Part shown: positions 8,226 through 58,570 of the stretch, piece by piece | How positions within the stretch are numbered: the first letter of the stretch is position 1 | How the letters are laid out: each line of letters starts with the position of its first letter | From: Branchiostoma floridae | Lineage: Eukaryota; Chordata; Leptocardii; Amphioxiformes; Branchiostomatidae | DNA: 64,000 nucleotides | NCBI RefSeq assembly: GCF_000003815.2 | Contig: NC_049982.1 | Location: forward strand, 2,009,413-2,073,412 | Direction of reading: 5' to 3' | Made by a program: the position numbers and the translations under genes | Notes under the pieces: model-generated | The model's input: only the letters and a program-made list of their open reading frames with translations | What the model was told of the DNA's origin: nothing | Databases searched by the model: none

Positions 8226-11200
8226 GTAAGTGCGAAAGCCAGGCCTTCAAACGGGGCCTCCGTTTGGCCACTATCCTACCTTTTCTGCGCCATAATCCCA
8301 ACGCCCTGTCGGCAAATGAATTACAGTAAGTGTGAATGTGAGATAACCAGGTGCAGATAGTGAAAGTGGATGATAATGTCTGATCTGGAGAGCTCGACTT
8401 CTGGTTTTATAGTCTTTTGCTACTTCCCACCACAAACAGGACTCCAGCAAAAGCCTTCAGCGTGCAGTCCGCCCGAATCAGATTTAATTTGTCCTCAGAA
8501 GTTTGTGTATTTGTCATGTGTTAGTGAACAGGTGATTTTGGAGGGTGTTTACCTCGGGTTCCCCTCCCCTACATGTCTGACGTGGGATATTATCTGGGAT
8601 ATGTCTAAATAAACAAACTAAAACGTAACACAGAAAAAAAGGTAATGCTGTGAGATTTACTTGTGATATTATTCCGGAGTTAATCTATATCCGTTGTATT
8701 TACTCAGTGATATATGAATATGTAATCAAGGGAATTTGGAGGGTGGTTTGAAACTATATCGCTTTGAAATTATTGCAATAATTTCAACACCACCATCCTT
8801 TGACTTGGTATCACCAAATACAATGGATATAGGTTACCCCTTGGATAAAGGTGAACCAGCGTCAGCAGTTATGAGGGGATTTTTAACACATGTCTCTAAC
8901 ATCGTCATAGAAAATGTAGCCAGCCCGGGCCTCGTTGGTGTAATTAATTTTGTATGGGGTCTGCTAGATTAGTGATTTATCAACTCTGTGACTTTGAAAT
9001 CTGACAGGTGGGTCAAACGGAGGTTTGGCCTTTGGTGATATATGTATATAATTGGGTTTGTCCAAAAATTTCCATAAATCAACAGTATAATGCAACATGT
9101 GACACAGTATGGAAATATTCATTAAAAATAAAAATAAAACAACACCAGGACTGTACTGAAGAACTTACAAGCTGCATATCTGGACATTTAGGTACAGTGG
9201 AAGCCAGTTAATTGCACGTCGGATAAATGCACACTTCGGTCTATTGCACGGAATCCCCACATCCCGTGGCTGTGTGGTCCAACTGGGTAACTTCGCATTA
9301 TTGTACACGCTGGATAACAGAATTCGCTGCCAAATTGGGTATGCAATTAAGTGGCTTTCACTGTATTTGATTCACTCCTACTGAGATAGACCCCTAATCT
9401 TTTCCATAACTGCATAAGTGTGGTGGGTTCATCTGCATTGTACATGCTCGATGTGTGGCTCTCCCCAAACATAGGACCTCCATTTTTAACACTTAATGCA
9501 AGGAACATCCCAAATGTAAACTAGGAATTTCACCTGAGAACATTTTAGAAGGAAATTGATGACATACAAAATTTTCATATTCATAAACATATAAGGGGAC
9601 TCCAACCCTGGGACTGTGGGCTTTGAACCAACATCAAACGCCTACTAGTACTGTTATACTTTTACAATGTATATTGTATGTGGATCGTACAGTAGTAACT
9701 CATGTTGTGAGCCATATACTGCTTCCTGATCGTGCAGGGCATTAGTTAATCTATGACTGAAGTCTGAACACACAGAATATGATAAACCAAACAATAGCAT
9801 AGAGTCCTCGTTTTGTCCTTTTACATTTTCTTATTTTAGTTTTACCTTATACTAGTTATAGAGAAATGACATCACATTAGCATTCTATGACATAAAGATA
9901 ACTAGACATTTTCTAATATACATGTAATATTAATATTTGCAATGCACTAAATATATATATGTGCCCCTTTTCTTTTGTAACTGCTTTGTGCGATAACATG
10001 GTAACAGGTTAAAAACTTATTCTTCATTCTAGAAACAGCAGAGAATTGATGCACAGATGTCATCCATATAATGAGATCAACATGGCCTAATTCAGACTTC
10101 TGGGAATCTCAAACAGAGTTCTGGAGAATTCCCAGAATTCTGGAAGTGTTCCAAATTTCTCTGCAATTCTCGCTGAGTTTCCCAGAATTCTGGAGAACTT
10201 GATATACTTACATGTATCGTCATTGATTCATTTTATCGGTGAATCAATAATAATAATAATGATATTCCAAGGTCAAAGAAGATGTGAAAGAACAAAATGA
10301 AGAAGTGACCATATTAGGAGGTACATGTAACATACCCTGTGACGTAGTTATGGTTAGTTGCTATATGGAGTATGGTTAGTTTGTTGATTATCAGGGCTCG
10401 AAATTCATTTTTGGGATCAGGTGCACTGGTGCGCCCAGCTTAAAGAATTGGGTACACCAAAAATTTTTTGGATGCACCACTTAAATTTAAGTAGAATGTC
10501 AGACAAAAATTAGTTACAAGCTATCAAATTCTTAAGCATGACAGACATTTTCATTATCTTTCTAACACTTAGATGTCAAGAATATGATGTATACTAGTAT
10601 ACTTGATATCTTTACATACATAAACCTAAGAAAATATTTGGGTGCACCCTGTGCACCCACTGAAAAAAATTGGGTGCACAGTTCCAATTTTGGGTGCACC
10701 TGGGTGCACATGCACCCAGTATTTCGAGCCCTGTTTATCAATATCATTCAATTGCTACTTATGTATGATTTGTTATCATTTGTTTCCCATTCAAAAGTAT
10801 TTATTAGGAGGAGGGCCTGTATAAGCCTATTTTTGGTTTCGCCCTCTTTCTCGAACATTTTTTTATACGATATTTAACTTTATTCTTCATGTACAAATAA
10901 ATAAAATAAAATCAGTATAAGTAAAGAGCACGCACTTCACTTCACTTCACTCATCCTCTTGCATGTGGTGCGTAGAGCCATGTGACAGAAGAGTGTCACA
11001 GCCTGTGTGGAGAAGGGTTCGTACGTTCCAGGTTGCGATTCAAACCTTGCTGCAGTACTAGTTTATCGGCAGCGCGCAGTGGGAGATTCCGAGAAAGTGA
11101 CTGAGTCCTAATCCTTCCAGTGGGTGTCGTTACGAGATAAAGTTCCGCCATGATGGGGTCGTTGGCTACGCTGCCCAAGTCAGCTGGTGGGGTATACAGG

Positions 11201-14200
11201 GCTGAAACTTCATTTTTCGGAATAGGTGCACTGGTGTACCCAACCTAGAATATTTTTGGGTGCACCACATAAAATAAAGTAGAATATCAGAATAACTTAA
11301 TTGCAAACCTACTATTAGTAATTTGAACGGAGCCCTTAGAAATCGGAAGTACTATGACAGTCATTTTATTTTTTTTTTCTAACACATAGATGTCAAGAAT
11401 ATGGTGTTTACTTCTAATAGTATACTGACATCTTAACATACATAAGCCTATGAAAATATTTGGGTGCACCCTGTGCACCCACAGAAAAAAATTGGGTGCA
11501 CAGTTCCAATTTTGGGTGCACCTGGGTGCACACGCACCCAGTATTTCGAGCCCTGCATAGATGTCAAGAATATGGTGTTTACTTAGTATACTGACATCTT
11601 TCCATACATAAACCTAAGAAAATATTTGGGTGCACCTGTGCACCCACAGAAAAAAATTGGGTGCACAGCTCCAATTCTGGGTGCACCTGGGTGCACATGC
11701 ACCCAGTATTTTGAGCCCTGGGTATAACTGACATGCTGATGGTCCATCCGTTAGCGACTACAGGGATTTTTTTAAACAAGGAAACTGGCGCTGCGCCCTC
11801 ATGCCCTGGCCTATGCCCCCTTACCCTCGGGAGCAGATCCTCTGGCAAGCAAAAAATTCTGATTGACCAGGGATCACATGTGGCAGGGTTCGAAATACAC
11901 AAACATAACTTGCAATTTGCATATAGTTTTTGAGATTTGCATGTAAAATCATTCTGAACTTGCAATCTTGCATGTTGAAAATACCTGGCCTATTGGAAAA
12001 ATACTGAGGAATTAGACCCCCTACTCTTAGAGTCAGACAAAAAGACAAATGTATGACTGTGTGTCTTTATCCTTTCTTGTTTTTGCCAGTAACTTTCTCT
12101 GGTAACTTAACTAGATGTAATCAAAATTCACCGATTTAAGCTAGCGATACTCGTCGCCATCGCGGCCTAAGTTGTATTTTGCATGTAAATTTTTCAAATT
12201 GCACGTAAAATTTTTGCCAACTTGCAATTTTGCATGTACCAAAAAAAAAGTATTTCGATCCCTGTGTGGCCACAGTCTTCAACTGTAATAACCTATTTCA
12301 TAATAATGTTTGGCCCCTAGGAAGCCATAAACATAAACACAAACAAACAAACAAAGCTGTCCATGTTGTGTTGCAGGTTTACTAAAGGCCTGTCTGTGGA
12401 TAAGATCTCCCTGAGCACACTAAAAGGAGAGGGGGAGCTGGTAAACACAAACATAAACACAAACAAACAAACAAACAAACAAACAAAGCTGTCCTTGTTG
12501 TGTTGCAGGTTTACTAAAGGCCTGTCTGTGGATAAGATCTCCCTGAGCACACTAAAAGGAGAGGGGGAGCTGGTAAACACAAACATAAACACAAACAAAC
12601 AAACAAACAAACAAACAAAGCTGTCCATGTTGTGTTGCAGGTTTACTAAAGGCCTGTCTGTGGATAAGATCTCCCTGAGCACACTAAAAGGGGAGGGGGA
12701 GCTGGTAAACACAAACATAAACACAAACAAACAAACAAACAAACAAAGCTGTCCATGTTGTGTTGCAGGTTTACTAAAGGCCTGTCTGTGGATAAGATCT
12801 CCCTGAGCACACTGAAAGGAGAGGGGGAACTGGTAAACACAAACATAAACACAAACAAACAAACAAACAAACCAAGCTGTCCTTGTTGTTTTGCAGGTTT
12901 ACTAAAGGCCTGTCTGTGGATAAGATATCCCTGAGCACACTGAANNNNNNNNNNNNNNNNNNNNNNNNNNNNNNNNNNNNNNNNNNNNNNNNNNNNNNNN
13001 NNNNNNNNNNNNNNNNNNNNNNNNNNNNNNNNNNNNNNNNNNNNACAAACAAACAAACAAAGCTGTCCATGTTGTGTTGCAGGTTTACTAAAGGCTTGTC
13101 TGTGGATAAGATCTCCCTGAGCACACTAAAAGGAGAGGGGGAGCTGGCCAACCTGGAGCTAGATGAGATCGTGCTTCAGGACGTGCTGGATCTGCCGACT
13201 TGGGTCACCATCAAGAAAGCCACGTGTAACAAGGTCGCCATCAAGGTCAGCCACGCAGTCTTCCATTTTCAGTTCCTTACATGTGAATGCACTGACCCTG
13301 TGACCCTGACCTCTTACATGATGCTGTAGATTCCATCATAGACACTGTATACACTATTGCTACCTTCTTTTATTAGTTTTTATGTGTTTAGATTAGAATA
13401 TTGTTTCTCATTATTGTCCTGTCAATGTCAGTGTCAATTTCCATTTATACTGTGCATGTCAGCAAGGGTAGCCTTTTCCAGAATAGATTTTAGAATATTG
13501 AACAAGCATGATACCATTTCGTTACAATACATAAACAATAATTGAAGGTCTTGTTCGAAGATTCGTCATTAAAGGTTAGACATCCAGCCAGGTAATAAGA
13601 CATGTGATATTTCAGAGAGGTTTATGTATGGAAAGATATCATGTATACTAGTATACATCATATTCTTGACATCTAAGTGTTAGAAAGATAATGAAAATGT
13701 CTGTCATGTTACTTGTTTAAGAATTTGTTAAGTTTTGTTACTAGGTTTTTTTTGCATTACTTAGATTTAAGTGTTGCACCCAAAAATGTTTTGGTGCACC
13801 CAATTTTTTAAGCTGGGTGCACCAGTGCACCTAATCCCAAAAATGAATTTCGAGCCCTGGCTTGTTTGTTGCCTGTTGATTTCACTGGTCACGACTCCAC
13901 CAACTGAGATCATGCGAGCGAGCTCGGCTCACGGCTTGGAACATCTAATTGAGTAAAGCCCAGGCAGAGTTGGAAATAAACTGTGGGCAAAAGTGCAGCC
14001 AGAATTGGAGCTGGGCACATAATAATTATGGTTGACTGGATGCAATTGTGTCTAGAATATTTATAGTATAGCTCACTGCTACCGGATGTCGTGGAGCCCC
14101 TACGACCCCTGAGGTTACGGGCCGTGAGTGAGTGAGTGAGTGAGTATAGGCTTGGATATTTGTGTGGAATTATGCTAGTATATACTGTAGCTAATAGTAA

Positions 14201-17200
14201 TAGTACATAGCATTTTTTTAACATTTAAGTGTCAGAAACAATGATAAATCTTTGTTGCTAGTGATTACTTTAAAAATGAATTTTGTTATAAAGGGACCCA
14301 GAGGCAGTATGGTTTAAGGTTTTTTTTTTTTTACATTCTACTAATTATTTCATTTTATTCTACTAATTATTTCATTTTATTCTACTAATTATTTCATTTT
14401 GTTCTTAATTATTTACACCGGGTCCCATATTTTTTTCTGTTCACCATATTTTATGGTTTTGTGCATCAGTGTGTGCCAGGCCAGTGAATGAACCAAGTAA
14501 GACATGAGCACCTATTGCCTTAAAATTAGTTTTGAGCCTTGTTCAGGTCTCTCACCAGGATATTTCACAGCATAGGGGCATCTTGTGCAAAGCCATGTGG
14601 GAAGTGATGTAGGCTTGAGTATTGTAGGGGGTCTGGGAAAATCAGCGAATTGAAGATCAGCATACTTACTGTCATTCCTGATTCTTTCAATGTAGTTTTA
14701 TGTTCACGGTTTTCACTGTGACAACTGTAACGTGAACTAATATCATTACCGATAACAAAAAACTTGTCTTGGTGACGATGACAATTCGTTCACCATGAAC
14801 ATTTAATTCAGACCGTTAAAGTTTGGTACCGAGAAGACAAAGTGCATGACAGTAGTTTACGGCATTATCATTGCAACACCTTTGAATTCCATCTCAACTT
14901 GGTTCGGTTTGACACATGGCAGCGGAACATGTGATAGTACATGTGATCAGTCCTTAATCAGCATGTTATTAATAATTGCTATTACCAGCCATTGTGAGGA
15001 AGTCCGCACAATCATAGCGATGATTCAGACATGAGCATATGTACTTACAGTCCACTGTAGAGGCCACACGATAATGTGTCAGGTTTGACACATGGCTGCA
15101 GAGTGGGATGATTCAAATGCGAGCACCTGTACTTACAGGCCACTGTAGAGGTCACACAATGTGCAGGGTTGGACAAGTCCACTATCCCCATTGTCCTGGG
15201 CAAGTGAATGTGCTGTTCGGGCAAGTGTGTGTGCTACCCCACTTGTCCGATCGGGCAAGTAAGATTTTTTCATTGAGTGAGATTTTATAGTTGTTACCAA
15301 AGTTTTACAGTCACGACATCAAACAATGGTCAACATTGAGGCTGGAAGTGGAAATGCATTTATAAAAGTGACAGTCAGTTGAATTTTGGGCAGGTGAAAA
15401 GTTGGTTTGGGCAAGTTCGCAACTAAATTTTTTATGTGCTTGCCCGATAGGACAAGTGATTTTTAGAAAACTTGTCCAACCCTGATGTGTCAGGTCAGAC
15501 ACATGGCTGCGGAGTGGTGATGATTCAGACACGAGCATATGTACTTACAGGCTACTGTAGAGGCCACATGATGTGTCATGTTGGACACGTGGCTGTGGCA
15601 TGCGCGGATTTAGGGGGGGGGCGCACCCGGCGCGCGCCCCCCCTTTGGCTGGACCCAAAAAAAAATTCGGCTGGACCGCCAAAAAAAAAGGAATTCCACA
15701 AATAAATCCAGAAAATCAGCGATAGTTTCAGCGAAGCGGCGACAATACAAAGCCGCCAACCAACAATACCAAGGCGCACTCCTCCCGCTTTTACTTCCTC
15801 ATTGTGTCGATCTTTGCGGGCATAGCCAGAATGTTTCGTAACCAGGACGTTGGCAATACTCCCGCCCTCCTTCGGAACTCGCTTATCTGACTCTAATATT
15901 GTTATTATATTTGCTATTTTGGAGCCCTATTAGCCCATGTGGACTGAGCGACGCAAGATACAATACATGTTAAACATTCATTCATTCATACTGTGACGGT
16001 AAATGTCAGGAGTAAAAATGTGTCAAACTTACGATATGTCTCCACTAAGGGACTTGACGATATTTACCGGGGGAAGGGCTGATGCAAAATGGGTCAGGTA
16101 AAAGAATCTTTTCCACTACACATTGTACGACATTTACACAAAAGAAACTAAATTAATGTTCTACTTGGAAGAGACTTGGGTACATTTTAGTGATATCGTG
16201 ACGAAAACCGCTTCAATACTGCTGTAATCATTCCAAAACGGAAGTTATTTCGGCCAACCAACAAACTTGCCGAAAAATATTCGCGCCATCATATGCATGA
16301 TTACGTCATATATGCACGCAGCAGATAGCCCGCCGTCACGAAAGTAAACATCGTAATGTTTCATCCCGTTGCCGTCCGTGAACCATTCCGTTAACAAAGA
16401 ACAGATGTACACAGGATTGATATTGATACCAATTTTAGTCTTCGTAAACTTCGTGCGAACATGGAATTACACGACAGAGGCGGCTGCAGCAAATTTCTTA
16501 TGGGGAGGGCGAACTATATTGACGTAATCCTAGGGGGTCCGGTGGCATGCTCTCCCGGAAAAATTTTGAAATCTTGACTATCCGAAACGATCTTTCCTAA
16601 CTTTTGATGGACAAATTTGCTGGCAGACTAAGCTAAGTTTAATAGCCTCTCTAGTAGGGTTTTTAGCTTATATTATTGAGGGCGACGACGCCCCCAACGT
16701 ATTTTCACAACTTTTAGCGCACGAGCCGTCGCAAGGTAGGTCTGGAGAAAAATGTTGAAATTTGAACCATCTGAAACAGGATTTTCTGCACTTTGAGGGA
16801 TAAACTTTAATGGTAGACTATGCTAAATGTAATGACATTTCTGTCAGGGGAAAAGATTTTTGATGGCGACGAGCGCCAGAGCGTCGTGGGCGCCGGAGGC
16901 GCAAGCCGTCGCCAGGCACGTCCAGAGAAAAATTGAAATCTTGACCACCTGAAACTTCATTTCCTGCGTTTTAGGGGCACATTTTGCTTGTATTTTTAAG
17001 GCCCCGTTTTAATAGGCATTTTTTTCAATGGCCCTCCCCCCGGCTCAAGACATGTTTCGATGGCCGTTCCCCCATGCCAAAAATATGATTATTGAATGTG
17101 AGATTGCTAACTATAAAAATCAGTGTTCTTTCGTTTATTATATTTGTTCAGCCCTAAAAGTCAGGGTTGATTCGTTGGTTATTTTTGCACAGAAATGGCT

Positions 17201-20200
17201 CTAAAATGCACCAGAGAGCCTCTTAATTTTAAAAAGTTCTCGGGGGAGGCCCCCCAAACCCCCCCAACGAGAGGGGGAAACCCCCCTCTCGTGCTCTCCC
17301 CCCGCGCAGCTACGCTGCGCATTCGTGGCCTTCGGCCACGACCTGAGGTGCGACAGCATATGCGCCCCCCCTTTGCAAAATCCTGGATCCGCCCCTGTGT
17401 GGTGTGTGTGAATGTGATGATTCAGAGGCGAGCACATGCACTTGCCACAGGACGAGTGTGGTGTAACACATGGATGCAGAGTGGCAATGATTCAGACATG
17501 AGCATATGTACTTACAGGCCACTGTACATTCTGTAGACTCCACATAATGAAATGGTTTGACATGTGGCTCGTGATGCCTACCCTACATGTACATGTATTA
17601 AACTGTTTGAACACACCAAGTCCCGCATTGTTCTGAATTAGTGCTGCTTAGGCCCAATCTATACACAGTTTTTGCCGATATCTGTGGATGTGTCGGGAGG
17701 GATCTGGAACGTTGGCCGCGGGACACCCGTGGCGCTTGCAGTCATAAACAGCTATATAGCCTAATGAGCCCGCGTTATATGCTAATGAGCCTTCCCAAAG
17801 TCAGGACACATCTACACGCATGCGGAAGCTGTCGGGGACCCCTGCTAAGCTATCGGGGACCCTTGCTAAGCTAATGTACGAATGGTCCGGACCTTTCGGG
17901 AGAAATTTTCCCGATATCTTTATGGCGATATTGCAGTTCCATCTAGACGCTGAAAAAAAGCTGTCGGCGAGGGGTTGTTGGCTCGCCGATATCGGGAAAA
18001 ACCGTGTCTAGATCGTGCCTTAGTCCCACAGTGTTCTCAAGTGCTGCTCTTCTCTCCCTGACATAACGTGAGAAGAACTGCTTTATTTGACCATCAACTC
18101 TGAGAAAGACAGTATCAAAGCTAAGTTGTGGAGTTGTGTTATCTTTTTGCTTTGACTTCACGAATGAAGATCCAATGTTCTTGTCCACGTTATGCTAGTA
18201 CTAGTAACCAGTGGGTGGTAAGGCCAATGGGTGATAGGAATATTTGGCCACAGCTGTTGCACAGGAATGACTGGAGCTACACAATATGCATACCCATGAT
18301 CATTTGTAATACAAAACAAACCATTAAAAAGATATTAGCTCAGTGAGCAACTCACGGTACATGTAACACAACAGTTTTTTTTAATGTTTCTAGTAAGTAC
18401 AAACTGCGTAAGACTGGACTAATAGCTTTGATCCACACAAATTGGCGTGAACCCTAATCTTCTTACTGATAATTGTGTTGGATTTTATAATGTGCTGGAG
18501 GTGAGGCTCTAGTCGTATTAAAACTCCCTCACGAAGCTCAGCTCAATAGCCGAAGCACAGGGGAAACGCAGGAGAACTACACCATGCAGAAGAGGAGATA
18601 TCTCCTGTGTGTATCATGCCCTTTTCCCCAGTCAGAGAGCTTCTAACATTTGTTTTAGAGGATATTTATCTGATAAGTTTCCTTATCGCGAATTAGAGAT
18701 TGTGATTGTTATATGTGTTCCTCATGTGATTCCTGGTAATCAGTCACACCCTAGGAGGAGAGCTGGGCAGAATTGATGGACAACAGGCTCCTATATCTTT
18801 ATCTCCAGGGCTAATTATGGGTAAAATCAATTATCCACGGATATTAGCTATGATTCTATTGGGTTTTGTGTCTATCATCCTTCAGTCATACATAATAATC
18901 ACATTGGGAAAGTGTTCTTGTATGTGTTGACTGCATGACTGAGATGGGAAAACCAGATTTACATCCTTGCCAATTTAGGACCTTAACCCTTAAACTGCCA
19001 AACCCGGATATATCTGGGTGTGGCACACAGGACATGTATATGTGTGCCAGATATATCCGTATTCCCCCGAATTAGCAACTTTGCGTGCACGTAGTGCACG
19101 AACCCTGGAAGTTAGGGATTTCGGCCTTGTTCGGCGGTTCTTTTTGGAGGTCAGCAGCCAACCCTGGCACTGATAGCATTTTATATTGCTAAAACTCTGG
19201 CAGTAATGTTGAGATCAGTGTGCAGACCATGGACTAATAGAGAATGCTTCTTACACAACCAGGTGGTACTTACATTCAGGGTTGTAGCCAGCCTGAAATC
19301 ATTTTCCGTCCCCTCAATTTTGAATCCCATCGAGTGCCCAAGGTGTGAGACGTCGTGACCTTTCTAGGTTGGTTTGAGTGCATGCACCCCCAGAAAATTT
19401 TGAAATCTAGATCCTCTGAAACAATATCTCCTGCATTTTGAGATGTACATTTTGCTGATAGACTCAACTGTTCAATTTCAACTGTTTTGATGAAAAATTA
19501 CAAAAGGGAGACAGTTTTATAATATCTTTTCAAATCGATTTTTGTCCGTCACAGAGGACGGAATGGTCAAAAAAATTTTTTCGTCCCCAGCTGCAAAATT
19601 CCGTCACAGGACGGAAGGACGGGTGCTGGCTAAAACCTTGCTTACATTAATTGCTTACGTTTCGATGTCTCTCAGACACCTTCGTCAGAGCTTCTAACTG
19701 GAGTTCTGCTTCTCACCGCTATAGTATATGTAGCCGATGTAGGTGGTGCTTTTGTGGTGAAAAAACAACGAGGGGGGATACAAGCTTAGCCACATATGGG
19801 ATTATCCCATCCGTGGCTAAGCTTGTATCCCCCCTCGTCCCGGTTCATCACTGGGGTTGACTTTCTTATCCAGAACTCCAGTTAGAACTTCTGACGAAGG
19901 TGTCTGAGAGACATCGAAACGTAAGCTATGTAAGTACCTGCTGGTTGTGTAAAAAGAGTTCTCCTATATCCTATATTCTACCAACCTGATGAAACTATTT
20001 TCGGAAGAACATGGACTAATAGGTCTGGATCAAACCTTGTGAGTCAGTGGGGTTGCTGCCTGTTGAGTCCTTGCATGCTATGGGTTCTGCACTTGGACAT
20101 GGCCTCTGCCTGCTAAATTAGTCAGATTCAGGCCTGAAAAAAAAATGTTTGTGTTTCCTGTTTCAGAACTGAAATAACTAGGGTTGGTAATTAGGTATTA

Positions 20201-23200
20201 TCTTTTCTTTTTCTTGTAATTTTTTTAGGCTGGCCAAAACTTTAGTGTGACATACAGTTGAACAAAGTAAACTGAAATGCATGAGGACACTAAGTAAGCG
20301 TCGTTCAATGTTAAACTTGAATGGTGTCCATAGAAGACACATTCATTCTTTATTAGATAGGACAGGCAGTGTTTTTACTTCTAATCAATAGAAAGCAGGC
20401 TGAGTAAAAATTCTAAATGGAAGCTACATTGTATGTGACTCCACTGCCCACCCAAAAAAAAGTGTAGGGATGGCAGGTGTTTCTAGGGTAGGTAGCCTAG
20501 GGAAACAGGAAACACAACATTTTTTTTCCTAGGCCTCAGCCATGCTACAGCTTTCACCTATGGTCCTTGTGTCGTGATGTTGACTTCCCACTCACACGTA
20601 CAAAGTCAAGGCTGTGTGTAGGGAAACATGGACTTCCGTGCGGCCTCGTTATTTTGTGGAGAGGCTCACATGGCCTTGAGTGATTGAGAAATTGAATGTT
20701 ATCCAACATTTTTACATACATGTCCACGTTCCTAGTCTGCAAGAAAGATGAATTTAACCATTGAAAATCTGCCGTCTATTAAAGTATTATGGACTGCAGC
20801 ATGCTGTCATTGGTGTTCTTATTTTACTTTTAGTTTGCATGGCTCGGAATACTTTTTTTTCTGCATACCTGCACTAGTGAAGGTAACACTGAAAATTACC
20901 TGCACCAGACAAATTTTACCTTACACCACTATGAATTTAGGAAGTATGGATCATACTATATTGTTCAGGAACTATTGCTATTTTCTCTTGTATACTTTTT
21001 AGGGGTTAACTTTCAATACTGCTAGCAACAATCCACTGCTCCACATACGCCTACATTATATGATATTTATATATAAAACCCATGGACCAGTACAGGTTAC
21101 TTTATAGGTGGTAACAGTCAATGCAGCAGTAACAGTCCACATACACCAATATGTATAAAACCCAGTACATGGACCAGTGCAGGTTAGGTGCGGGTAGACA
21201 TCAGAAATACCTGCACAGCTCCAATTTTACCTGCACTAACCTGCATGCAGGTGGTATTTCGAGCCCTGGTTTGCCAATTCTGCTGTCAAATTTCCATGGA
21301 ATGATTGGAATTTTGTCTGACAAATTGCAATGATGAGGGTATTGCCAGCCCTACCTGTGTGCTGTGTTTCTCACTGTTGAATGTAGGAAATCAAGAAGTT
21401 TAGCAGTAGGACTCATTATTATGCGAGTATCAAAAGTTGTAGTGTTAGGTACGTATCTACTAGTAGCTGTTGGTGTGGTTCAAGCTAGTCCAGATGTGAA
21501 GATTGTTTCTCATCAACTCCTGTGTTTCATTCAGTGAGAGAAACTGTAAATGTTTTGAACATGGATTGCTTATATGAGTTCCCTATGATCTGACACTAGG
21601 ACTGGGTATCGGTACAGCGTACCGGTACAAAACTGTTTTTTCTTGTTGGACTGGTCCAGAAAAATCGGACCTGAAAAAAATAGGTGGACCGGATGTTGGA
21701 CCTAATAGAAAATTAACATATTGTTTGATCAGGTATTCAAACGTTTTTGGCATGCGCACTTGCAGGTGGAAGAAAATAAAGAGTGAAACAGAGTAGAGTT
21801 TGTAGTCATATATTTCAACCTCCTAGTTTCTACCAAGTTTTACAGTCATTCGTACAGGTGCAGTTATCGTTGCAGGGTTTTAAAGTGTGACAGTGTGAGT
21901 CTAATACTCCACCAAACAGATTTCTTTGTAGTGAAATGGACCATTGGTATGAGTCATACTGAATCAGGTCCAGGTTCAGGTCCGGACCTGAATCTGATCA
22001 TCTGAACCTGAACCGGACCTGAACCTGGATTTTCTGTTCCGGTACCCAGCCCTATCTGACACTGTTAGGTCCACTGGTCATTGTGCGATCTCCATGTTAG
22101 GTGCACAAGTGTGAAATGTGTGAGCTGTGTGTGTTTGTGTTAAGTCCATATTTAACTCCAGGGCTCAGCCTGGCATATCTGGCAACAATGATGGAGCATT
22201 CATCATTTAACCAGTGCCAGGGCTCGAAATACCATCATGCAGGTTAGTGCAAGTAAAACTGGAAATGTGCCTGCCAGGTATTTCTGGTCTCTACCTGCAC
22301 CTAACCTGCACTGGTCCATGTACTGGGTTTTATACATAAATGTCATACGATGTAGATGTGGATTGTTATTAGTTGCATTAAAAATTACCACCTATAAAGT
22401 ATAAAAGAAAGAAATGGCAATGGTTCCTGATCAATTTTAGTATGGTCCATACTACTTAAATTCAGAGTGGTGCAGGTAAAATTTGTCTGGCGCAGGTAAT
22501 TTTCAATAGTATGCAGAAGTATTTCGAGCCCTGCCAGTGCCCAATGTTGTGATCACCATGGAATGGCGGCTCCATAGTGATTTTAAGCCTCAATACATAT
22601 TAAAAGTCTTGTTGTGAAAATTCTTTGATATCAGACAATCAGTCAATATTCGGGTCTCCAGTATAGAATTGTCGTGCATAAGTGCACTTCACTTTTATAC
22701 ATGAATATTGACAGGACAGCGTAAGGCAAGAGCAGTGTAATCTACCAGCAGGGCTCAAATACTTATTTTTGGAATACCTGCACTAGTGAAGGTAACATTG
22801 AAAATTACCTGCATTACTCTTAATTTAGGAAGTATGGATCGTACTAAAATTGGTCAGGAACCATTGCTTTTTTTGCTTCTATACTCTATAGGTGGTAGAA
22901 GTTAATTCAGCTAATAACAATCCACATACACTTACATCATATGACATTTATGTATAAAACCCAGGGCAGGTTAGGTGCAGGTAGATACCAAAGATACCTG
23001 TACAGCTCCAATTTTACCTGAATTAACCTGCACATATATGACAGGTAGTATTTTGCGCCCTGTACCAGTAATGCAGGGGTTTGGGCACTGCAAGGAGAAA
23101 CCTCTTACGGAGACCACTTCAACTGGATTTGTTGGCTCTCAGATTTATAGTGCTACACTGGAAAATACAGATGAAATGTGCGCACAGTTAGAATGTACAT

Positions 23201-47200: not shown

Positions 47201-50200
47201 TCGACGAGATGTCCCTCGACAACTTCTCGCTGGACAACATGTCCTTGGACAGCTCGGATAGTGGAGACCCGTATGTCCTGGCAGGGACTGAAATGTCCAC
47301 GCTGTCGGTCGACACCCTCTCCATCTCCTCCCAGGTGAGACTTGTTTGTTTGTTTGTTTGTTTGTTTGTTTGTTTGTTTGTTTGTTCGACAGCGGGACCC
47401 GTACGTCCTGGCAGGGACGGAAATGTCCACACTGTCGGTCGACACCCTCTCCATCTCCTCCCAGGTGAGTTTGTTTGTTTGTTTGTTTGTTTGTTGGACA
47501 GCGGGACCCGTACGTCCTGGCAGGGACCGAAATGTTCACACTGTCGGTCGACACCCTCTCCATCTCTTCCCAGGTGAGTTTGTTTGTTTGTTTGTTTGTT
47601 TGTTTGTTTGTTTGTTGGACAGTGGGGATCTGTATGTCCTGGCAGGGACGGAAATGTCCACACTGTCGGTCGACATCCTCTCCATCTCCTCCCAGATGAG
47701 TTTGTTTGTTTGTTTGTTTGTTTGTTTGTTTGTTGGACAGGGGGGATCTGTATGTCCTGGCAGGGACGGAAATGTCCACACTGTCGGTCGACACCCTCTC
47801 CATCTCCTCGCAGGTGAGTTTGTTTGTTTGTTTGTTTGTTTGTTGGACAGCAGGGATCTGTATGTCCTGGCAGGGACCGAAATGTCCACACGGTCGGTCG
47901 ACACCCTCTCCATCTCTTCCCAGGTGAGACTTGTTTGTTTTTGTTTGTTTGTTTGTTTGTTCGACAGCACGGACAGTGGGGACGCATATATCCTGTCAGA
48001 GACAGATGTGTCCACACTGTCGGTGGATACCATCTCCTTGTCTGTGAGGTGAGTTGGGTTGGTTAGTGAGCAGAATAATGTTTAATTTGTAATAGATTAG
48101 CTCTACATGTACTTCCTTTACAGAAAATGTTTCACTTCAGATTAATATGTAACCTGAATTACCTATGATGCATGTTAATGCTCCCTGCCCTCTCTAAGTA
48201 CCAGAGCTCCTATCAAACAAAATCAATCTTTAAAATTGGTACAGACTCCTTTCTCTAAAGCCCCCTTTACAAATCAAGAATTTAGCTCGGCCGAGTTGTC
48301 AGCGAGCTCTAAATTACGAGGAGGTATAACCCTGATGCCGACGAAGAAACTCTACCATTTGTTCGTAGGCATCAGGGTCATACCTCCTCCTAATTAAGAG
48401 CTCGCTAACAACTCGGCCGAGCTAAATTCTTGATTTGTAAAGGGGGCTTTAGCACACAGGACATATGAAATAAAGTATGGGGGTTGAACACACACCATTG
48501 TCAGTGGATTAACACTTTACTGTAGTTGCCTAACTGGCCCACTGGCCCAGGGCAATAGAAACAAAGAGGCGCTGAAAGGTGTTTTAATGATTTAAACTTT
48601 TGTTCACCACCCCAGGGGAGCAGGAGCGCCCCCGTCAGCCACCAGTCGTCGTTCGAGCGCGGTGGCGATGCAGAACCGACCAGACAAGCTTCGCTGGAGG
48701 ACGGCAGGGACGGACGGCCTACTGCCCTGTCAGGTGGGCTATAGTTACATTTGAGTCCTACTCAGACTTTAGGCCATGGACAGGATGGTACATTGTTACT
48801 GGTAGTTCTGTTATCCTGATAAAGGCTTGCCTCCTTCGCTGGAGGATGGCAGGGACGGACGGCCTACTGCCCTGTCAGGTAGGCTATAGTTACATTTTTG
48901 TCCTGTTCAGACTATAGGCCATGGACAGGATGGTACATTGTTACTGGTAGTTCTGTTATCCTGATAAAGGCTTGCCTCCTTCGCTGGAGGATGGCAGGGA
49001 CGGACGGCCTACTGCCCTGTCAGGTACACTGTATGCTATGATCATTCTTTGTCATACCTGGGTGGTGATAATGTTCAGTACACAATGTCCAGGGCTGTTT
49101 AGACCATGGACAGGATGGTACATTGTTTTCTGGTAGTTCTGTTGATAAAGGCTTGCCTCCTTCGCTGGAGGACGGCAGGGACGGACGGCCTACTGCCCTG
49201 TCAGGTACACTGTATGCTATGATCATTCTTTGTCATACCTGGGTGGTGGTAATGTTCAGTACACAATGTCCAGGGCTGTTCAGGGCTGTTTAGACCATGG
49301 ACAGGATGGTACATTGTTACTGGTAGTTGTGTTACCCTGATAAAGGCTTGCCTCCTTCGCTGGAGGATGGCAGGGATGGACGGCCTTCTGCCCTGTCAGG
49401 TGGGCTATAGTTACATTTTTGTCCTACTCAGACTATAGACCATGGACAGGATGGTACATTGTTACTGGTAGTTCTGTTGATAAAGGCTTGCCTCCTTCGC
49501 TGGAGGATGGCAGGGACGGACGGCCTAATGCCCTGTCAGGTGGGCTATAGTTACATTTTTGTCCTGTTCAGACTTTAGACCATGGACAGGATGGTATAAT
49601 GTTAAGTTCTGTTACCATGATAGAGGCCCCTATTGCACAATGTAAGTCTTACGTTGTACAATGTCTGTATTCTATGTTTATTGAATATTTTTGTATGGAA
49701 GAGAGCAGAGGTATACAAATGTACATGTTCAACGGCCTCCATCCATTTTGAAAGACTGTGGGTTTGGTACATAGTTTATTACGTACATGCAATACAAACC
49801 TTGTTAGAAGTGAAGGTAAAGCACAGGAGGCACAAAATGTAGTCCCAGGAAAGGTGGAACAGTTACTGCAGCCAAAGGATAGCCAATTCTTTCTGCCCTG
49901 CTTGAAGGTTTCTCATCTTTTATTGCACAGAATGTCAGTCCTTCATTTTAGCAGAAGAGTTCCCACTAAACTACATGATCATGATGTTACATTGTTTTGT
50001 TATTCTTTTACAATACCTGTATTGCAGGTGAGGGAGAGGGTGGGACCAGACCTAAGAAGGTGACGCTTGAGTACTGCGACAGCGAGAGTTCCACAGAGGA
50101 GGTCTCACAGAGCGCAGGAGGCAGTTCTGCAACCTTAGAGGACGCCAAGAACAGAAAAACTGTAAGCTCAGCTGATGGTACTCAGATTGACTAGGGCAGC

Positions 50201-53200
50201 GATGAAAAACAAACTATTCCATGTACTATAACCTTACTAGTAGTTCAGACCTTAGAGAGGGCCAAGAATAGAAAAACTGTATACTAAGCTTTAAGCTGAT
50301 GGTGCTCTGACTGGATAAGACATGTTATAGCCGCAATAAAAGACAAACTGTCTTAAGTTTGCAAAATTTTGTTTCTGAACTGACGCAGAAAAATGAATCA
50401 CCACATCTTTCAGCTGCATCGAAAAAATAACTATTCTTTTAGAACAGTTACTTTAACTATTCCAGCATGACTTTTTGTGCTTGTACCACAATGCATACAT
50501 GTATAGTGTGTAAAAGACAAACAGTAGTTGCAAAATTCAACTCATAATTTGTGCCTTGTGCCCCTAGGCCACCGTACAGTTACTTTAACTATTCCAGCAT
50601 GACTTTTTGTGCTTTGTACCACAATGCATACATGTATAGTGTGTAAAAGACAAACAGTAGTTGCAAAATTCAACTCATAATTTGTGCCTTGTGCCCCTAG
50701 GCCACCGTGCTGGTACTGCACCTGTCTGATATAGGGCTGGAGTTGTCCAACCACCAGCGAGACAACTTCACCAAACTGCAGGGGCAGACATTTCTAAGTT
50801 ATTCTTTTCCTTGCGCCCCCTAGGCCACAGTGCTGGTACTGCACCTGTCGGATATCGGGCTGGAGTTGTCGAACCACCAGCGAGACAACTTCACCAAACT
50901 GCAGGGGCAGGAAATAACCTTCGAGGAGAGGAGAGAGGTCGACGTGCAGGAATTCCTCGCAAAAATCAGCCAGAGTAAGGAAATTTCCAGTTAATCCACT
51001 TTTCGTTTTCAAAGTTCTTGCTTTGCTATTTCCACAGAAACTATTATCAATGTATTTTCCAGCATTTTCCAGGATGATTTAGAGTTCAACTTTAGCGAAC
51101 ATTTACAGCCTTGTGACAGGCGCGGGACAAAGTCTACATTGTAACCTTATCTGTCCATTTACTGGAAAATTTGTAAAAATAAGATCGTGGTATCTCATAT
51201 AATCTTGCCTCCTTAGATTTTGAACGACTTTGGGACTTCAACATTTATAGTCAAAAATTTTGAAATTTGAGGGGAAAATTCTGTACTTTTGGGTGATAGC
51301 AAATATAAAGTTTTGTGACCATTAATTAATGTATGATTTAAACGAAAGTTAAGATTTTAGCATGAAAGTTCATCTGTGTTGGTAGAATACATTATAGAAA
51401 TTGCTAAACTTTCTTTCCAACACTGAATTAATATAGGGACTTACCCTAAATTAATTCAGTGTTGGAAAGAAAGTTTAGCAATTTCTATAATGAAAGTTAA
51501 GATATTAGATTTTTAACTCACTCTGAAGGGTCTATTTCCAGATTGAAAGTGCACATTGTATACAGCTGTTATTGACTTGACTGATGTTGCGTTGCAGGAA
51601 AGAGGCATCGACGTCACATCAAATTCAGGACGATGTTTCCGACAGAGGACAGCCCTTCCCGGAGGAGAAGGGGTGATGGTCGCCGTTGTGTTTTGTCCCG
51701 TGGTTGTTAGCTGTATAGATAGGCTAGTTCAAGGTTTAGAGTTCACATGCATGGGTTCAAAGTTGAAGACCCAGGCCATTCTTTATGTCTTGCCAGGAGT
51801 CTTCAACTTTGATGGTACCTACACTGTACAATTGTGCTCAAACCTTGAATACACCTTTCTCACGCGGCGGCCATGATAGATCTAAAAAGAGTTCAATGTG
51901 GCAAACAAAAAGCTGTCCATCATAATTAGCAGTTCAACTTATGATAGTCTGCCAATTAGGAAAGCGACCATTAAGTGAATGGCTACAAATCCGTCAAAAA
52001 TTTGCATTACTATGTTTTAATTTTGCATCTCTTTAGGGACTATGGGGTCAGTCTTCACTACTCTAAATTGCTACATCTTTCGGTGCATAACACTTCTTGT
52101 AGTATTTATTATTCTATCTTGTATCATGAAAATTTGTGTGGTTTGGGGGGAAACTAAATGGGACCTGATTTTAGAAATAAGTTTTGTCTGTTTGCCTCAT
52201 TGACCTCGTCTTCGATCTATCATGGCCGCCGCGTGAGAAAGGTGTATTAGATTATTTGGCTATTTCTGAAAAATAACCAATGAAATAGGATAATGGGCTT
52301 TTGTACATCAGTGTATAACAGATTCCGGCTGCACAAAAGCATGGAATGCTTTTTGAAAAAAAAAAAAAAAAACTTTGTCGTAAATTTTTAACGCTGGTAA
52401 GACTTTATGCAAATTTTGAAAATCTAGGACAACATTGCATTTATTTCAGTTAATGTTAAAGCACATTTGACAAAGGAGTGATTGATTTTTTCTCGTCTTT
52501 CAGAGCTGTGCTACAGTAACTGCATGCTGCTTGTGTTAGCGTTCATCCAACCTTCTGTTCCCCTGTAGATTTAGGGTTTTTAAGTGTGTCGCTTCATTTT
52601 GATGCTTCGTTTCTTTTCCCTTTTCTCAGATCCATCCCATCATTCCCGGTCAGGGGCTCTCTGGTTCCTGTTACCCACAATCCTTTGTTCTTTGCAGTCG
52701 TTTACTTTGTCAATTATTCCTTTTTTTCTTAATTAATACTAATTTGATTTCTTTGTTTTCAGGAATGCATGACTTTCTCGATTCATAAAATTGTATTTTA
52801 CCAGTGAGGTCATCTTTTATTTTTGTTTATTTTAGCATTTTGCAAAAATGTAAAACTCAGAGAGTTAAGAATCCTTAGTAAATACTGAAAAGACAAGTAG
52901 ACAGTAGACGCCACCAGAAAGAAAGATATGTTGAGTTACCATCTGAACACAGCAATTGTCAACAGAAATATATCTGAGGTTGTCTGCCAGGGTAAAACTC
53001 TTGTGAAAAGTGAAAAAAAGCAACAGTCACTTAGAGTTAGACTGACTTGACTGTTTTTGGGGTTTGCTTTGGCGCTAAGTTTCAACTATGAACTTTTTAG
53101 AACACCAGGATTATGAAGTTGATGGTTTTTGTAACGTCCATAATTGCAGGAAAGAAAGACGTGCCCCTGCCCCCTCCGACGGACGCCTTTCCGCATGTGT

Positions 53201-56200
53201 CTGCTCGCCTGGAGAGCGGGCCGCACGCAGCGCGGTATTCTCCCAACGCCCCCAAGCTGGGTCACCTGGAACTGCAGCTGCAGGGCGCGGCCGGGGTCGT
53301 TACCATGTCAACGCTGACAGGGGTTGCGAGCCTGATCGAGGATGAGATTCTCACCACCCCCATGCCGATGAGAGTGGATTTCGTCGATTCGCAGTTAAGC
53401 CTTGTGGTGAGTTAACGTTTTTGGCTACACCCCAGGGGCGGAGGCCATTCTACTCGGTATTGCAACTTGTGGTGCCTCTCCAACATTTGGATGATACTGT
53501 CATCTTTTAGATTTTGCCTTTGCCATTTCATCCAATTTGAACTGATTTCCGAACATATTCAACATGTGATACATGGTTTTGTGAGAATTGATTTTCTTGT
53601 TCTTTTTTTGTTCCTCATTGTTCAACACTTTTTTGAGAATTTGTTTGTTTTTTGGTGGATGTTTTAAGACAATGTACTGCATTGTTATTACACTTTCACG
53701 TCTGTCTCTCTTGTTCTGTTGTCTCAGATCAAGCTTTTCCTACCTTTGGTAAGTCCCAAATGGCACAGACACGGTTGTTCTTAAACACAATTTGTCTTGT
53801 AAATCATCATTCTTTCTAGATGTCTGTCTAGTTGTTGCTGTTTTATTTTATACAACTCACCTTTCTTCACTTCTTCTAATTTTTTCATGAAATATTGTTT
53901 GCCATGTCGCTGATGGTCTATACCTTTGAAAGCCTTTTGTAATGACACATTGCCTTCTGAATTACCCAACGTTGAATGGAAGGAAGCAAACAATAGCAGT
54001 GCTCTAAATACCACCTGCATATGCAGGTTAGTGCAGGTAAAACTGGAGCTGTGCAGGCATTACTGGTGTCTACCTGCACCTAACCTGCACTGATCCATAT
54101 AAAGGGTTTTACATGCATAAATGTCCTGTGATGTAGGTGTATGTTGATTGTTATTAGCTGCATTGAATTTTACCACCTATTAAGTATAAATAGCAATGGT
54201 TCCCGAACAATTCTAGTATGATCCATACTTCCTAAATTCAGAGTGGTGCAGGTAAAATTTGTCTGGTGCAGGTAATTTTCAATGTTACCTGCACCTGTGC
54301 AGGTATGCAGAAAAAAGTATTTCGATCCCTGAATAGTGTGACAGATTAATCAGTGCATAATGTTATAACTTTAAAGGTAAACACCTTGCTCCCACCAATG
54401 TCCCACACACCCCACTGTGAGCAGTATGATTGTATGTCTGTTTGACCGTACATGTATGTTGTTCACCTGTGGATTTGGGTTTCCCGCTTGCTCGATTTAG
54501 GAGTTCTGGGTAAGACTTCAAGAAACTTCTGCCCTGCCCCTTTCCTGTTTTTTTTTTAAATTCCAAGAGTCAATATTTTGCACAACTCTGATCTGTGCCC
54601 TAGATATGTTCCAGTTACATGGACTTTGTAAAGGACATGAATGTTTGATTGACTTTGAAAAAAAAAATTTACTAACAATGTTACTAACCAGCAACTTTTT
54701 ATACAGTAGATTTTTTCTGCCTTTGAAATTCACGCTCATCAAGAGAGGATGTGTATTTTTGTTCGGCTTTGACCAAACGTTATGTCGTACTGTAAGAAAT
54801 CATACCAGAAAGTAAGTAATTCATGATACAATCCATGAAAGGTAGAAGCTACCTGCGCTTATCTGACACTAGCTTAGGGAACAAAATTTAAGATAAAATA
54901 AGCTAATTTAGCCTTAAAGCTAATACTATTAACCACACATATTAATCATTAGATACCTATACATGAAGTATCTTTCCCATCTACATTGTATGGACACAAA
55001 GTTTACATTGTATGGACACAAAGTAAACTCTATTCCCCCATTACCAGGACGACGGCCCTCCCCTTAACCCTGGTTCTCCCGGGACTGTCCCTCTGGACAT
55101 CCACGTGGACCGCGCCACTGTGGTACGGAGGGAGGACGGAATATTCCATCTCACCTGTAAGTAATACCGAGACTTCTGTAGAATATGGATGTATTTAAAA
55201 GTTTTTTGGTGCAAAGTAGCATCCTTAGCAGCTGGACTAGGAGTTTGAGTATGAGGTACATTGTATGTGTTCAAGTACCATAATCTTTTGAAAATTAATG
55301 TACTTTTCATGACATGCACATGTCATAGAATGATGTAGAATGATGACTATTCTGGCATGTTAGGAGTGCACTTCTGTTGTTGACAATTCAATCTCTACAC
55401 ATATATACAACTGGATGAAGTTCAGAGTTCCCATCTAGACATTTCAAGTGACATCCATCACAGACAGTCACACATTCAGTGTCACTAGAAAGTAATGCCT
55501 GAGTTCATTCTAGTGATGCTGAAGAAGAGTGATGGATGTCACTGCAAACATCCAAAAGTAATCTCCCAAATCCATCCAGCTGTCTGAGTCTGAATTGTCC
55601 TAAGATTGTTTATCTGGATAAAGATTGAATAGTTGGTAACTATGTTTCAGGTTTGGCCTCCTGGCCAGGGGTGGATAGTGCTCTGTCAGTGAGACAGACA
55701 GACTATACACACAGCTTGGTGCAGGCAGACCAGGCTACAGGCACACAGATATCATAACAGATAACATACATGTGTGGATGTTACAGGTGCAGGCAGGCCA
55801 ATGCTACAGGCACACAGATGTCACAACAGATAACATGCATGTGTGGATGTTACAGGTTTGGCCCCCTCCCCACGGCCGGATGTAGGTTTATCAGTGAGAC
55901 CAACGGACTACACACAGGCTGGTGCAGGCAGACCAGAGCTACAGGCACACAGATGTCACAACAGATAACATGCATGTGTGGATGTTACAGGTACAGGTAG
56001 ACCAGAGCTACCGGCACACAGATATCATAACAGATAACATGCATGTGTGGATGTTACAGGTTTGGCCCCCTCCCCACGGCCGGATCACAGATGTCATAAC
56101 AGATAACATGTATGTGTGGATGTTACAGGTTTGGCGCCCTCCCCACGGCCGGATGTTAGTTTATCTGTGAGACCGACAGAGTACACACAGGCTGGTGCAG

Positions 56201-58379: not shown

Positions 58380-58570
58380 CGTGTGCCCCCTCCCCACCCC
58401 ACAGCGCCCCCCTCCCCACCCCACAGCGCCCCCCTCCCACACCACTATGCTTGAGTCCGACCGCGAGAAGAACTTTCTGAGGGACCAACTCAAGAGGAGA
58501 AGTCCCAGGAAGTGATGTGCGCCCCCCTCCCCACCCCACAGCGCCCCCCTCCCCACCCCACAGCACCAGG
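58311..58570. repeat. Exon-edge duplication at the stop codon, 136 bp x 2
   Basis: The last 22 codons and stop, from ATGCTGGAGTCGGACCGCGA, are repeated at 58447-58515 as ATGCTTGAGTCCGACCGCGA to GGAAGTGA. The stops TGA lie at 58377 and 58513. The C-rich start of the 3'UTR is copied too. The copy lies within the 3'UTR, after the real stop. Confidence 0.93.

What the first reader, a model, noticed from the sequence alone, without database searches (positions are those of the whole stretch)
12326..58570. Exon-edge tandem duplication pervades one gene: 16 of 24 BLTP3 exons affected
Seen directly: exons 2, 3, 4, 6, 7, 10, 11, 12, 14, 15, 17, 18, 19, 20, 23 and 24 each have a boundary copied 2 to about 18 times together with flanking intron and splice site. 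Minisatellites spanning exon-intron boundaries have, as I recall, been described at the amphioxus Adh locus under the name mirages. What stands out here is the density in one gene. Such arrays multiply usable splice sites while leaving one full exon. The regularity suggests a process that favours boundaries (for example template switching or splicing-coupled events) rather than random slippage. The mechanism is inference.
Basis: partly seen in the sequence, partly recalled or inferred. Interest (0 to 1): 0.88.

Follow-up and report, generated by a model that had tools for sequence, protein, structure and literature searches.

The report
Repeated exon edges in amphioxus genes
In this lancelet gene more than half of the exons have one edge, with its splice site, copied in tandem beside the intact exon; other genes of the same genome show it too, in part with the same four-letter repeat at the copied edge, which may show how introns change or arise.

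Summary
The window holds a BLTP3A/B gene (Pfam PF24917, E 1e-255), modelled here with 26 exons and 50 splice edges. 15 of 50 edges, each in a different exon, lie in local tandem arrays of 2-19 copies; 59 of 61 extra copies keep AG or GT. Copies look mainly non-coding: changes private to one copy fall 30/36/44 on codon positions 1/2/3, those private to the real exon 4/0/17. Database proteins from other Branchiostoma assemblies contain translated copies at six edges, so assembly error is unlikely. This is the known amphioxus 'mirage'. Founder units sit on edges 5.4-fold above uniform placement, 2.5-fold after GC matching (P 2e-4); a plain coverage test is not significant. Beyond the finding: 6 of 20 arrays in 25 other 10-kb windows are, by eye, exon-edge arrays of other genes; and (AAAC)n/(GTTT)n runs mark splice edges (18 of 18 in the window, 9 of 9 in the sample, 18 of 22 in a systematic genomic set, partly judged by eye), in some loci as the end of a dispersed repeat. 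Insertion at splice edges is a candidate founding mechanism, unproven.

The parts
8182..58379 (+). BLTP3A/B (bridge-like lipid transfer protein 3) coding region, 26 exons, 1872 aa
12326..13147 (+). Exon 2 acceptor-edge array, at least 6 copies, unit 128-132 bp, (ACAA)n at the junction, 100-N gap at 12945-13044; real exon 13083-13245
24462..24638 (+). Exon 3 donor-edge array, 3 copies, 68 bp; real exon 24374-24495
25343..26482 (+). Exon 4 donor-edge array, 19 copies, 58-62 bp; real exon 25263-25371
28635..28851 (+). Exon 6 donor edge, 2 copies 110 bp apart; real exon 28535-28666
29153..30395 (+). Exon 7 acceptor-edge array, 8 copies, 129 and about 160 bp; three of the longer units join exon and intron at 5-8 bp of microhomology; real exon 30287-30445
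38947..39342 (+). Exon 11 acceptor-edge array, 4 copies, 95-99 bp; real exon 39301-39563
40608..40939 (+). Exon 12 donor-edge array, 3 copies, about 120 bp; a copy of dispersed repeat family A follows at 40967-41056; real exon 40520-40661
41208..41419 (+). Exon 13 donor-edge array, 3 copies, 81-85 bp, with (ACAA)n; real exon 41136-41242
42146..42782 (+). Exon 15 acceptor-edge array, 5 copies, 112-171 bp, with (GTTT)n; real exon 42668-42877
44964..45315 (+). Exon 16 donor edge, 2 copies 286 bp apart with 220 bp of unrelated sequence between them; real exon 43414-45015
47245..48064 (+). Exon 18 donor-edge array, 6 copies plus a diverged terminal copy (edge 48049), (GTTT)n junctions; copies also carry an acceptor-like GGACAG, the first one enclosing 72 nt in frame; real exon 47050-47334
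48689..49627 (+). Exon 19 donor-edge array, 6 copies, 140-195 bp; real exon 48616-48733
50132..50313 (+). Exon 20 donor edge, 2 diverged copies 117 bp apart; real exon 50028-50161
50444..50910 (+). Exon 21 acceptor-edge array, 3 copies, 123-133 bp; real exon 50824-50974
55642..56220 (+). Exon 25 acceptor-edge array, 4 edge copies, 69 and about 204 bp; real exon 56129-56256
58310..58568 (+). Exon 26: end of the coding sequence, stop codon and adjacent sequence repeated about twice (136 bp); not a splice edge
   Evidence: copy of the last 22 codons at 58447-58512

Best explanation
The arrays are mirage minisatellites. Shown: a short stretch spanning one edge of an existing exon is present in tandem copies, with the complete exon next to them. 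Inferred: a local duplication founded each array, and arrays grow and shrink by slippage or unequal exchange, as minisatellites do. Inferred: they are tolerated because a copied edge adds only half an exon; under exon definition a half exon tends to be passed over, the intact exon is spliced and the copies drift as intron. Shown in outline: edges are hit more often than uniform placement predicts, so tolerance alone does not explain everything. Inferred: founding breaks or insertions are favoured near splice edges, in 4 of 15 arrays here together with an (AAAC)n/(GTTT)n tract.
For: 15 of 50 edges arrayed, never both edges of one exon (random chance of the latter 0.057, so weak). Changes private to one copy 30/36/44 on codon positions 1/2/3 (P 0.27), private to the real exon 4/0/17 (P 1e-5). 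59 of 61 extra copies keep the AG or GT; 36 of 37 donor and 23 of 24 acceptor copies score at least as high as the weakest real site of the gene. 13 of 61 copies have a partner-site candidate scoring 6 or more, about the mean of real sites (five of them at exon 18). Founder placement above uniform and GC-matched expectation. Database proteins from other Branchiostoma assemblies carry translated copies at exons 2, 4, 14, 15, 16 and 18. Exon-edge arrays in other genes of the genome.
Against: Coverage test not significant. Without exon 25 the copy-private changes lean to third positions, 14/18/30 (P 0.035), without exons 25 and 18 13/15/29 (P 0.018); in four arrays of other genes they are 6/2/14, and pooled with this gene 36/38/58 (P 0.035): some copies may be, or may recently have been, coding, or exchange sequence with the exon. 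By the laxer yardstick of the weakest real site 40 of 61 copies have a partner candidate, so the half-exon argument is only weakly supported by these scores. Exonic and intronic parts do not differ clearly in length (P 0.73) or divergence (P 0.14). No RNA data: use or skipping of copies was not seen. Splice scores come from a matrix trained on this gene's own sites.
Confidence: 0.6

Rival explanations
1. Insertion model: founders are insertions at splice edges of a short element or of its (AAAC)n end alone, with a long (roughly 40-110 bp) target-site duplication that carries the exon edge; arrays then grow from [edge][filler][edge].
For: (AAAC)n runs of 16 bp or more lie only in exon-edge arrays in the window (18 of 18; exons 2, 13, 15, 18). 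Of 9 in the 25-window sample, 6 lie in two exon-edge arrays by the first count; on inspection a seventh lies in a decayed part of one of them and two lie about 24 nt before two other acceptors. All 22 plus-strand (GTTT)5 loci listed for C1:1-2.45 Mb: 18 at splice edges by eye (10 backed by homology, 3 of these weakly), 1 just after a stop codon, 3 without a visible exon. In several loci the tract is the end of a dispersed repeat family. In 14 of 15 arrays, all but exon 7, units contain at least 10 bp aligned to neither flank.
Against: 11 of 15 arrays here show no such run, and the 20 spread windows have none. Part of the filler may be diverged exon or intron. In the three loci followed 700 bp further, two with the tract at the donor and one a few bases inside the intron, no edge copy was seen on the far side. 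In exon 12 the repeat lies after the array, not inside it. The planned genome-wide control tetranucleotide got no answer. Exon 7 shows microhomology without filler in three units.
Confidence: 0.25
2. Tolerance only: tandem duplications arise anywhere; those inside exons are purged unless in frame, those at edges and in introns survive; no boundary preference exists.
For: Exon-internal arrays noted here and in the sample have units in multiples of three (39 bp in exon 16; 54/108 and 45 bp in L009, 60 bp in L016); coverage test not significant; GC matching halves the excess.
Against: Introns would then hold most arrays; 12 of 18, or 15 of 26, are on edges, above expectation in the three GC-matched versions run.
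Confidence: 0.27
3. Functional arrays: redundant splice sites or in-frame cassettes kept for alternative splicing or protein variation, for example exon 18.
For: First exon 18 unit: 72 nt, in frame, both sites strong; the diverged terminal copy keeps a reading frame (TDSGDAYILSETDVSTLSVDTISLSV) similar to the real exon; B. lanceolatum models include such copies; third-position lean of some copies.
Against: The best-scoring cassettes of the other four listed exon 18 copies are not multiples of three, and the terminal copy does not fit the phase of its neighbours (by hand); exon 2 copies are 64 nt and would shift the frame; over all arrays copy-private changes are not significantly biased.
Confidence: 0.07
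4. Assembly artefact or mis-joined haplotypes.
For: Heterozygous species (recalled); an N gap lies in one array.
Against: Copies carry private mutations, the real exon a different selection signature; proteins from other assemblies show arrays at the same edges.
Confidence: 0.02

Closest known systems
Amphioxus mirages (Adh3; globins BflGb6 and BflGb9; troponin C; PGBD5)
   Different: 15 edges of one gene; the passages I saw name one boundary per globin gene and a few elsewhere, and do not mention (AAAC)n or codon positions.
Partial exons in introns of amphioxus VCBP3
   Same: Complete or partial exons, some with canonical splice sites, lie in introns next to the exon they resemble (passage of PMC2632668).
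   Different: Not described there as tandem arrays of one edge.
Intron gain by tandem genomic duplication of an AGGT segment
   Same: Local tandem duplication around splice signals, effect hidden by splicing (passages of PMC3443670).
   Different: Here the edge of an existing intron is copied; no new intron is shown.
Introners and other transposon-born introns
   Same: Dispersed repeats at splice sites; L055 looks like a repeat inserted in a reading frame with an intron-like layout (by eye).
   Different: Arrays are copies of host exon edges; the PNAS 2022 survey (PMC9860276) has no occurrence of Branchiostoma or amphioxus in its main text (term search).
Human tandem repeats at exon-intron boundaries in segmental duplications
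   Same: Repeat variation at boundaries changes splicing or makes introns (passages of PMC2812944).
   Different: Those lie in recent human paralogs and are often retained in exons; here a conserved gene with copies that look mainly intronic.

Membership tests
[quoted passage not shown]
   15 of 50 edges
Mirage minisatellites | Either the 5' or the 3' boundary can be duplicated | tested here: met
   6 acceptor and 9 donor edges
Mirage minisatellites | Found in a cephalochordate | tested here: met
   98.5% identity over 1399 columns to a Branchiostoma floridae x belcheri protein; genome of 513 Mb; species name inferred, not given by a tool
Mirage minisatellites | Regular splicing not disturbed | not testable with these tools
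   No transcripts; indirect support from codon positions
Mirage minisatellites | Length polymorphism, also somatic | not testable with these tools
   One assembly only; database proteins of other assemblies differ in copies and units
Intron gain by AGGT tandem duplication | The duplication creates a new intron inside an exon | tested here: not met
   All 15 arrays lie at an existing intron of the model
Introner or retroelement insertion | Inserted element flanked by target-site duplications | tested here: inconclusive
   L046, L048 and L055: no edge copy within 700 bp beyond the tract; L055: about 12-bp direct repeat by eye
Introner or retroelement insertion | The same element family at several places | tested here: met
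   Family A beside the tract in L043, L046, L048, L051; family B in L050 and L055; of these, L043 and L051 show no exon; that these are retroelements is inference

The most novel reading that the evidence does not exclude
The amphioxus genome undergoes a lasting process that inserts short elements ending in (AAAC)n, or the tail alone, at splice edges, duplicating the edge as an unusually long target-site duplication. Repeated in perhaps thousands of places, it produces mirage arrays, sometimes exonises or intronises copies, and may be a source of intron and exon change in a chordate.
Probability: 0.2. Interest if true: 0.87.

Novelty: new variant of a known kind. Interest (0 to 1): 0.64.

Why it matters
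In the papers seen here mirages are reported gene by gene. One gene with 15, and the same structure in glycogen synthase, eIF3K, methionine synthase, dynein, PSME4 and others, suggest a genome-level feature that can be counted. They ask how the spliceosome passes over dozens of near-perfect splice sites, they offer a natural series from copied edge to possible new exon or intron, and they corrupt gene models: B. lanceolatum and hybrid proteins in public databases contain inserts of up to 194 residues made largely of translated array. The link to (AAAC)n makes the founding event testable.

Tried and rejected
Coverage-based circular shift: no significant edge excess; kept as a negative result. 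Longer exonic than intronic homology: suggested, not upheld with lenient scoring (9 of 15, P 0.73). First codon-position count (57/48/130) counted one change of the real exon many times; replaced by polarised counts, which leave out the three two-copy arrays (exons 6, 16, 20; 2/2/6, not polarised) and variants shared by several copies (5/4/10). Candidate exons at 24781-24834, 53728-53748 and 56942-56968 of the first 28-exon draft were dropped before all counts because the aligned Branchiostoma proteins lack them. The array at 56656-56945, next to one of them, is therefore counted as not on an edge. Myosin-head search: 142 matches (65 of 346 candidates scored); I saw no tandem repeats of one profile segment in the table, but short copies would not show. 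Alanyl-tRNA-synthetase reading of L034: Pfam and PDB searches found nothing, so it counts as reading frame plus splice site only; exons of L037, L038, L046 and L055 gave no Pfam match either; L045, L049 and L054 were not tested. A control tetranucleotide, AATG, was asked for nine times without an answer. The control used instead is the other microsatellites: 6 runs in the window, none within 100 bp of a splice edge, though one, (GT)8 at 40794, lies inside the exon 12 array; 8 other tetranucleotide runs in the sample, none at a visible exon, judged by eye.
Full report
What the gene is. A 26-exon model from 8182 to 58379 has GT-AG at every intron, no internal stop and 1872 residues. In a protein search 1784 of 7987 scored candidates passed E 0.001; 120 were listed and the best four are Branchiostoma proteins. 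The model is 98.5% identical to P0004 (B. floridae x B. belcheri hybrid, 1413 aa) over 1399 columns, 88% to P0001 (B. lanceolatum) in the longest match, and 80% to P0002 (same hybrid, other contig). The window lies at 2,009,413-2,073,412 of contig C4 of a 513-Mb genome. B. floridae is inferred; no tool named the species.

The observation. Of 50 splice edges, 15 lie in local duplications. One search lists 61 extra copies: exon 2 (5), 3 (2), 4 (18), 6 (1), 7 (7), 11 (3), 12 (2), 13 (2), 15 (4), 16 (1), 18 (5), 19 (5), 20 (1), 21 (2), 25 (3); a diverged further copy at exon 18 was found later. All but two of the 61 keep AG or GT. For acceptor arrays the full exon is the last copy, for donor arrays the first. 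No exon has both edges arrayed; with 15 random edges that has probability 0.057.

Chance. The test depends on the unit tested. Sliding the duplicated bases over the gene gives 11.4 +- 3.1 covered edges against 15 (800 of 5010 shifts reach it): not significant, because duplicated bases now make up 23% of the gene. But a 62-bp duplication that later grew to 1.1 kb was one event of 62 bp. With arrays collapsed to about one unit and units placed at random outside pure exon, 12 of 18 TRF arrays of period 40 or more are on an edge against 2.2 expected (P 7e-8), or 4.9 after GC matching (P 2e-4); 15 of 26 against 3.4 or 6.1 when 8 self-BLAST arrays are added; 15 of 19 against 9.4 (P 0.003) in the hardest version; 0 of 11 for non-exonic periods of 10-39. 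Units and assignments were entered by hand; an array counts as on an edge if its units contain copies of that edge, even where the TRF interval stops short of the real exon. Two self-BLAST clusters (36241-36376; exon-internal 43758-43936) were left out. An excess exists; its size depends on how composition is handled.

What the copies do. In exonic parts, changes private to a single copy fall 30/36/44 on codon positions 1/2/3; changes private to the real exon fall 4/0/17. The intact exon is thus the selected one and the copies drift largely as non-coding DNA. This also argues against invented copies. Reservations: without exon 25 the copy counts are 14/18/30 (P 0.035), without exons 25 and 18 13/15/29 (P 0.018); four arrays of other genes alone give 6/2/14 for copies and 1/1/1 for the real exon, pooled 36/38/58 (P 0.035) and 5/1/18. 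So some constraint on copies, or exchange with the exon, is not excluded. Copy splice sites score like real ones (36 of 37 donors and 23 of 24 acceptors at least equal to the weakest real site; 34 and 16 above the 95th percentile of intronic GT and AG), as near identity implies, so the spliceosome must pass over them for another reason. Exon definition (established model, not tested here) is one: 13 of 61 copies have a partner candidate scoring 6 or more (exon 18: 5; exons 4, 19, 25: 2 each; 12, 16: 1 each), 40 of 61 reach the weakest real site, 3 have no candidate. That is weak support. Cassettes to watch: exon 2 copies form 64-nt cassettes that would shift the frame; the first exon 18 unit forms an in-frame 72-nt cassette; the terminal exon 18 copy keeps a similar reading frame that does not fit the phase of its neighbours (by hand).

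Other assemblies. Aligned to the model, P0003 (B. lanceolatum) has inserts of 164, 103 and 94 residues at the ends of exons 4, 14 and 18, P0001 one of 194 at exon 18, and P0002 inserts of 43, 32 and 72 at exons 2, 14 and 16 (sequences). By eye these consist largely of exon-edge peptides, repeated, with intron read-through, some in a shifted frame (exon 16 in P0002, exon 14 in P0003). The 103-residue insert also holds exon 15 edge copies. Inserts without edge repeats (14 residues in P0001 and P0003, 77 in P0003) are not counted. So exons 2, 4, 15, 16 and 18 are arrayed in another assembly too, and exon 14 elsewhere but not here. Some units differ: the exon 2 unit in P0002 runs further into the exon than the 65 nt seen here. 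These are database gene models, not proven proteins.

Beyond this gene. In 25 windows of 10 kb (5 flanking the window, 20 spread over contigs C1-C4, C6, C8 and C10; 235.6 kb of letters) TRF finds 20 arrays of period 40 or more, 0.85 per 10 kb, against 3.6 in this gene. I read 7 of the 20 in full sequence and judged the other 13 from unit consensus and reading frames. Six are exon-edge arrays by eye: otopetrin-like donor (L011), glycogen synthase acceptor and donor (L013), two in L014 and one in L026. Pfam supports otopetrin (1.3e-5, below the curated cut-off) and glycogen synthase (1e-27, 2e-18); the exon peptides of the other three gave no match. Three of the six lie in the 20 spread windows (192.8 kb of letters). 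Scaled to 513 Mb this suggests thousands, with a wide error.

The (AAAC)n mark. Runs of (AAAC)4 or more: 18 in the window, all inside the arrays of exons 2, 13, 15 and 18; 9 in the sample, all in L011-L013. A first count put 6 of these 9 in exon-edge arrays; inspection put a seventh in a decayed part of the glycogen synthase array and two about 24 nt before other acceptors, one of them a glycogen synthase exon by Pfam (3.7e-14), the other untested. The 20 spread windows have none, so the mark may be regional or gene-specific. Other microsatellites as control: 6 runs in the window, none within 100 bp of an edge but one inside the exon 12 array; 8 other tetranucleotide runs in the sample, none at a visible exon. 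A whole-genome pattern search gives 3939 plus 3648 overlapping hits of (GTTT)5 and lists only the first places; I grouped these by hand into 22 loci, plus-strand runs of C1 up to 2.45 Mb, and fetched all 22. By eye 18 are at a splice edge: 10 as arrays (L034-L039, L041, L045, L053, L054) and 8 as a single run close to it (L040, L046-L050, L052, L055). L042 starts just after a dynein stop codon (Pfam Dynein_C 6e-10); L043, L044 and L051 show no exon. Homology supports 10 of the 18: eIF3K 6e-14 (98), methionine synthase 8e-15 and dynein 7e-12 (94), DNAH6 1e-4 (100), PSME4 2e-7 (99), KMO 4.5e-11 (101), a kinase 3e-9 (94), and weakly a second dynein exon 0.003 (102), CFAP61 9e-5 (95, below cut-off) and a redox domain 0.007 (94, below cut-off). 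The other 8 rest on an open frame and splice dinucleotides. Four of the 22 loci lie within 53 kb and look like one dynein gene, and L047 and L048 lie 22 kb apart, so the loci are not all independent. If 5-10% of the genome lies that near an edge (assumed; about 6% in this gene), 18 of 22 has P below 1e-14, and 11 of 22 would have 3e-6 or less.

A possible source. In L046, L048, L051 and L043 the tract borders or lies near copies of one dispersed repeat (family A; also at 40967-41056 in the window, just after the exon 12 array), and in L050 and L055 of another (family B). That these are retroelements with an (AAAC)n tail is inference. In L046 and L055 the tract begins at the donor. L055 looks like a family B copy inside a reading frame, flanked by a roughly 12-bp direct repeat, laid out as an intron; this is a by-eye reading. 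No copy of the exon edge was found within 700 bp on the far side in the three loci followed, so the long target-site duplication that would tie insertions to mirages is not shown. In 14 of 15 arrays here the units contain 10 bp or more aligned to neither flank, as an insertion would leave, though some of it may be diverged exon or intron; three units of exon 7 instead join at a clean 5-8 bp microhomology. More than one founding route is likely.

Known or new. Tandem repeats spanning exon-intron boundaries are known in amphioxus as mirages; the globin paper lists Adh3 and other genes, says that RT-PCR suggests regular splicing is not disturbed, and proposes intron gain from them (abstract and passages of PMC3087553); PGBD5 and troponin C are in a passage of PMC3902484; partial exons in introns of VCBP3 are mentioned in a passage of PMC2632668. 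Full-text searches, whose listings are in part capped and which I read as titles and abstract starts, showed no genome-wide count of mirages and no (AAAC)n link; most subscription journals are not held, and the original Adh3 paper was not seen. Hence: a new and extreme case of a known kind, plus a sequence association I have not found in print.

Noticed in passing
43758-44033: In-frame coding minisatellite in exon 16 (39-bp and about 30-bp units, 13 and 10 residues); the exon-internal arrays I noted have units in multiples of three.
   Followed up: partly
23561-24144; L032:441-4020; L033:7679-9422: Intronic array with CCTGTCCTTGGTGCTGA units; similar motifs form large arrays in L032 and L033, apparently a dispersed satellite family.
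   Followed up: no
56656-56945 and 57712-57948: Two further arrays (56 and 59 bp) in the last intron; the first ends at a possible 27-nt exon (56942-56968) that the compared proteins lack.
   Followed up: no
L046+L056, 747-1020: A further donor-edge-like array (63-bp units) on the exon after the repeat-containing intron at C1:838 kb.
   Followed up: no
6217-6778: 27-bp minisatellite of about 21 copies upstream of the gene, open in several frames.
   Followed up: no
L029:6076, L030:3114: (TTCA)n runs follow AATAAAG-like sequence, as tails of another dispersed element would; not at exon edges (by eye).
   Followed up: no
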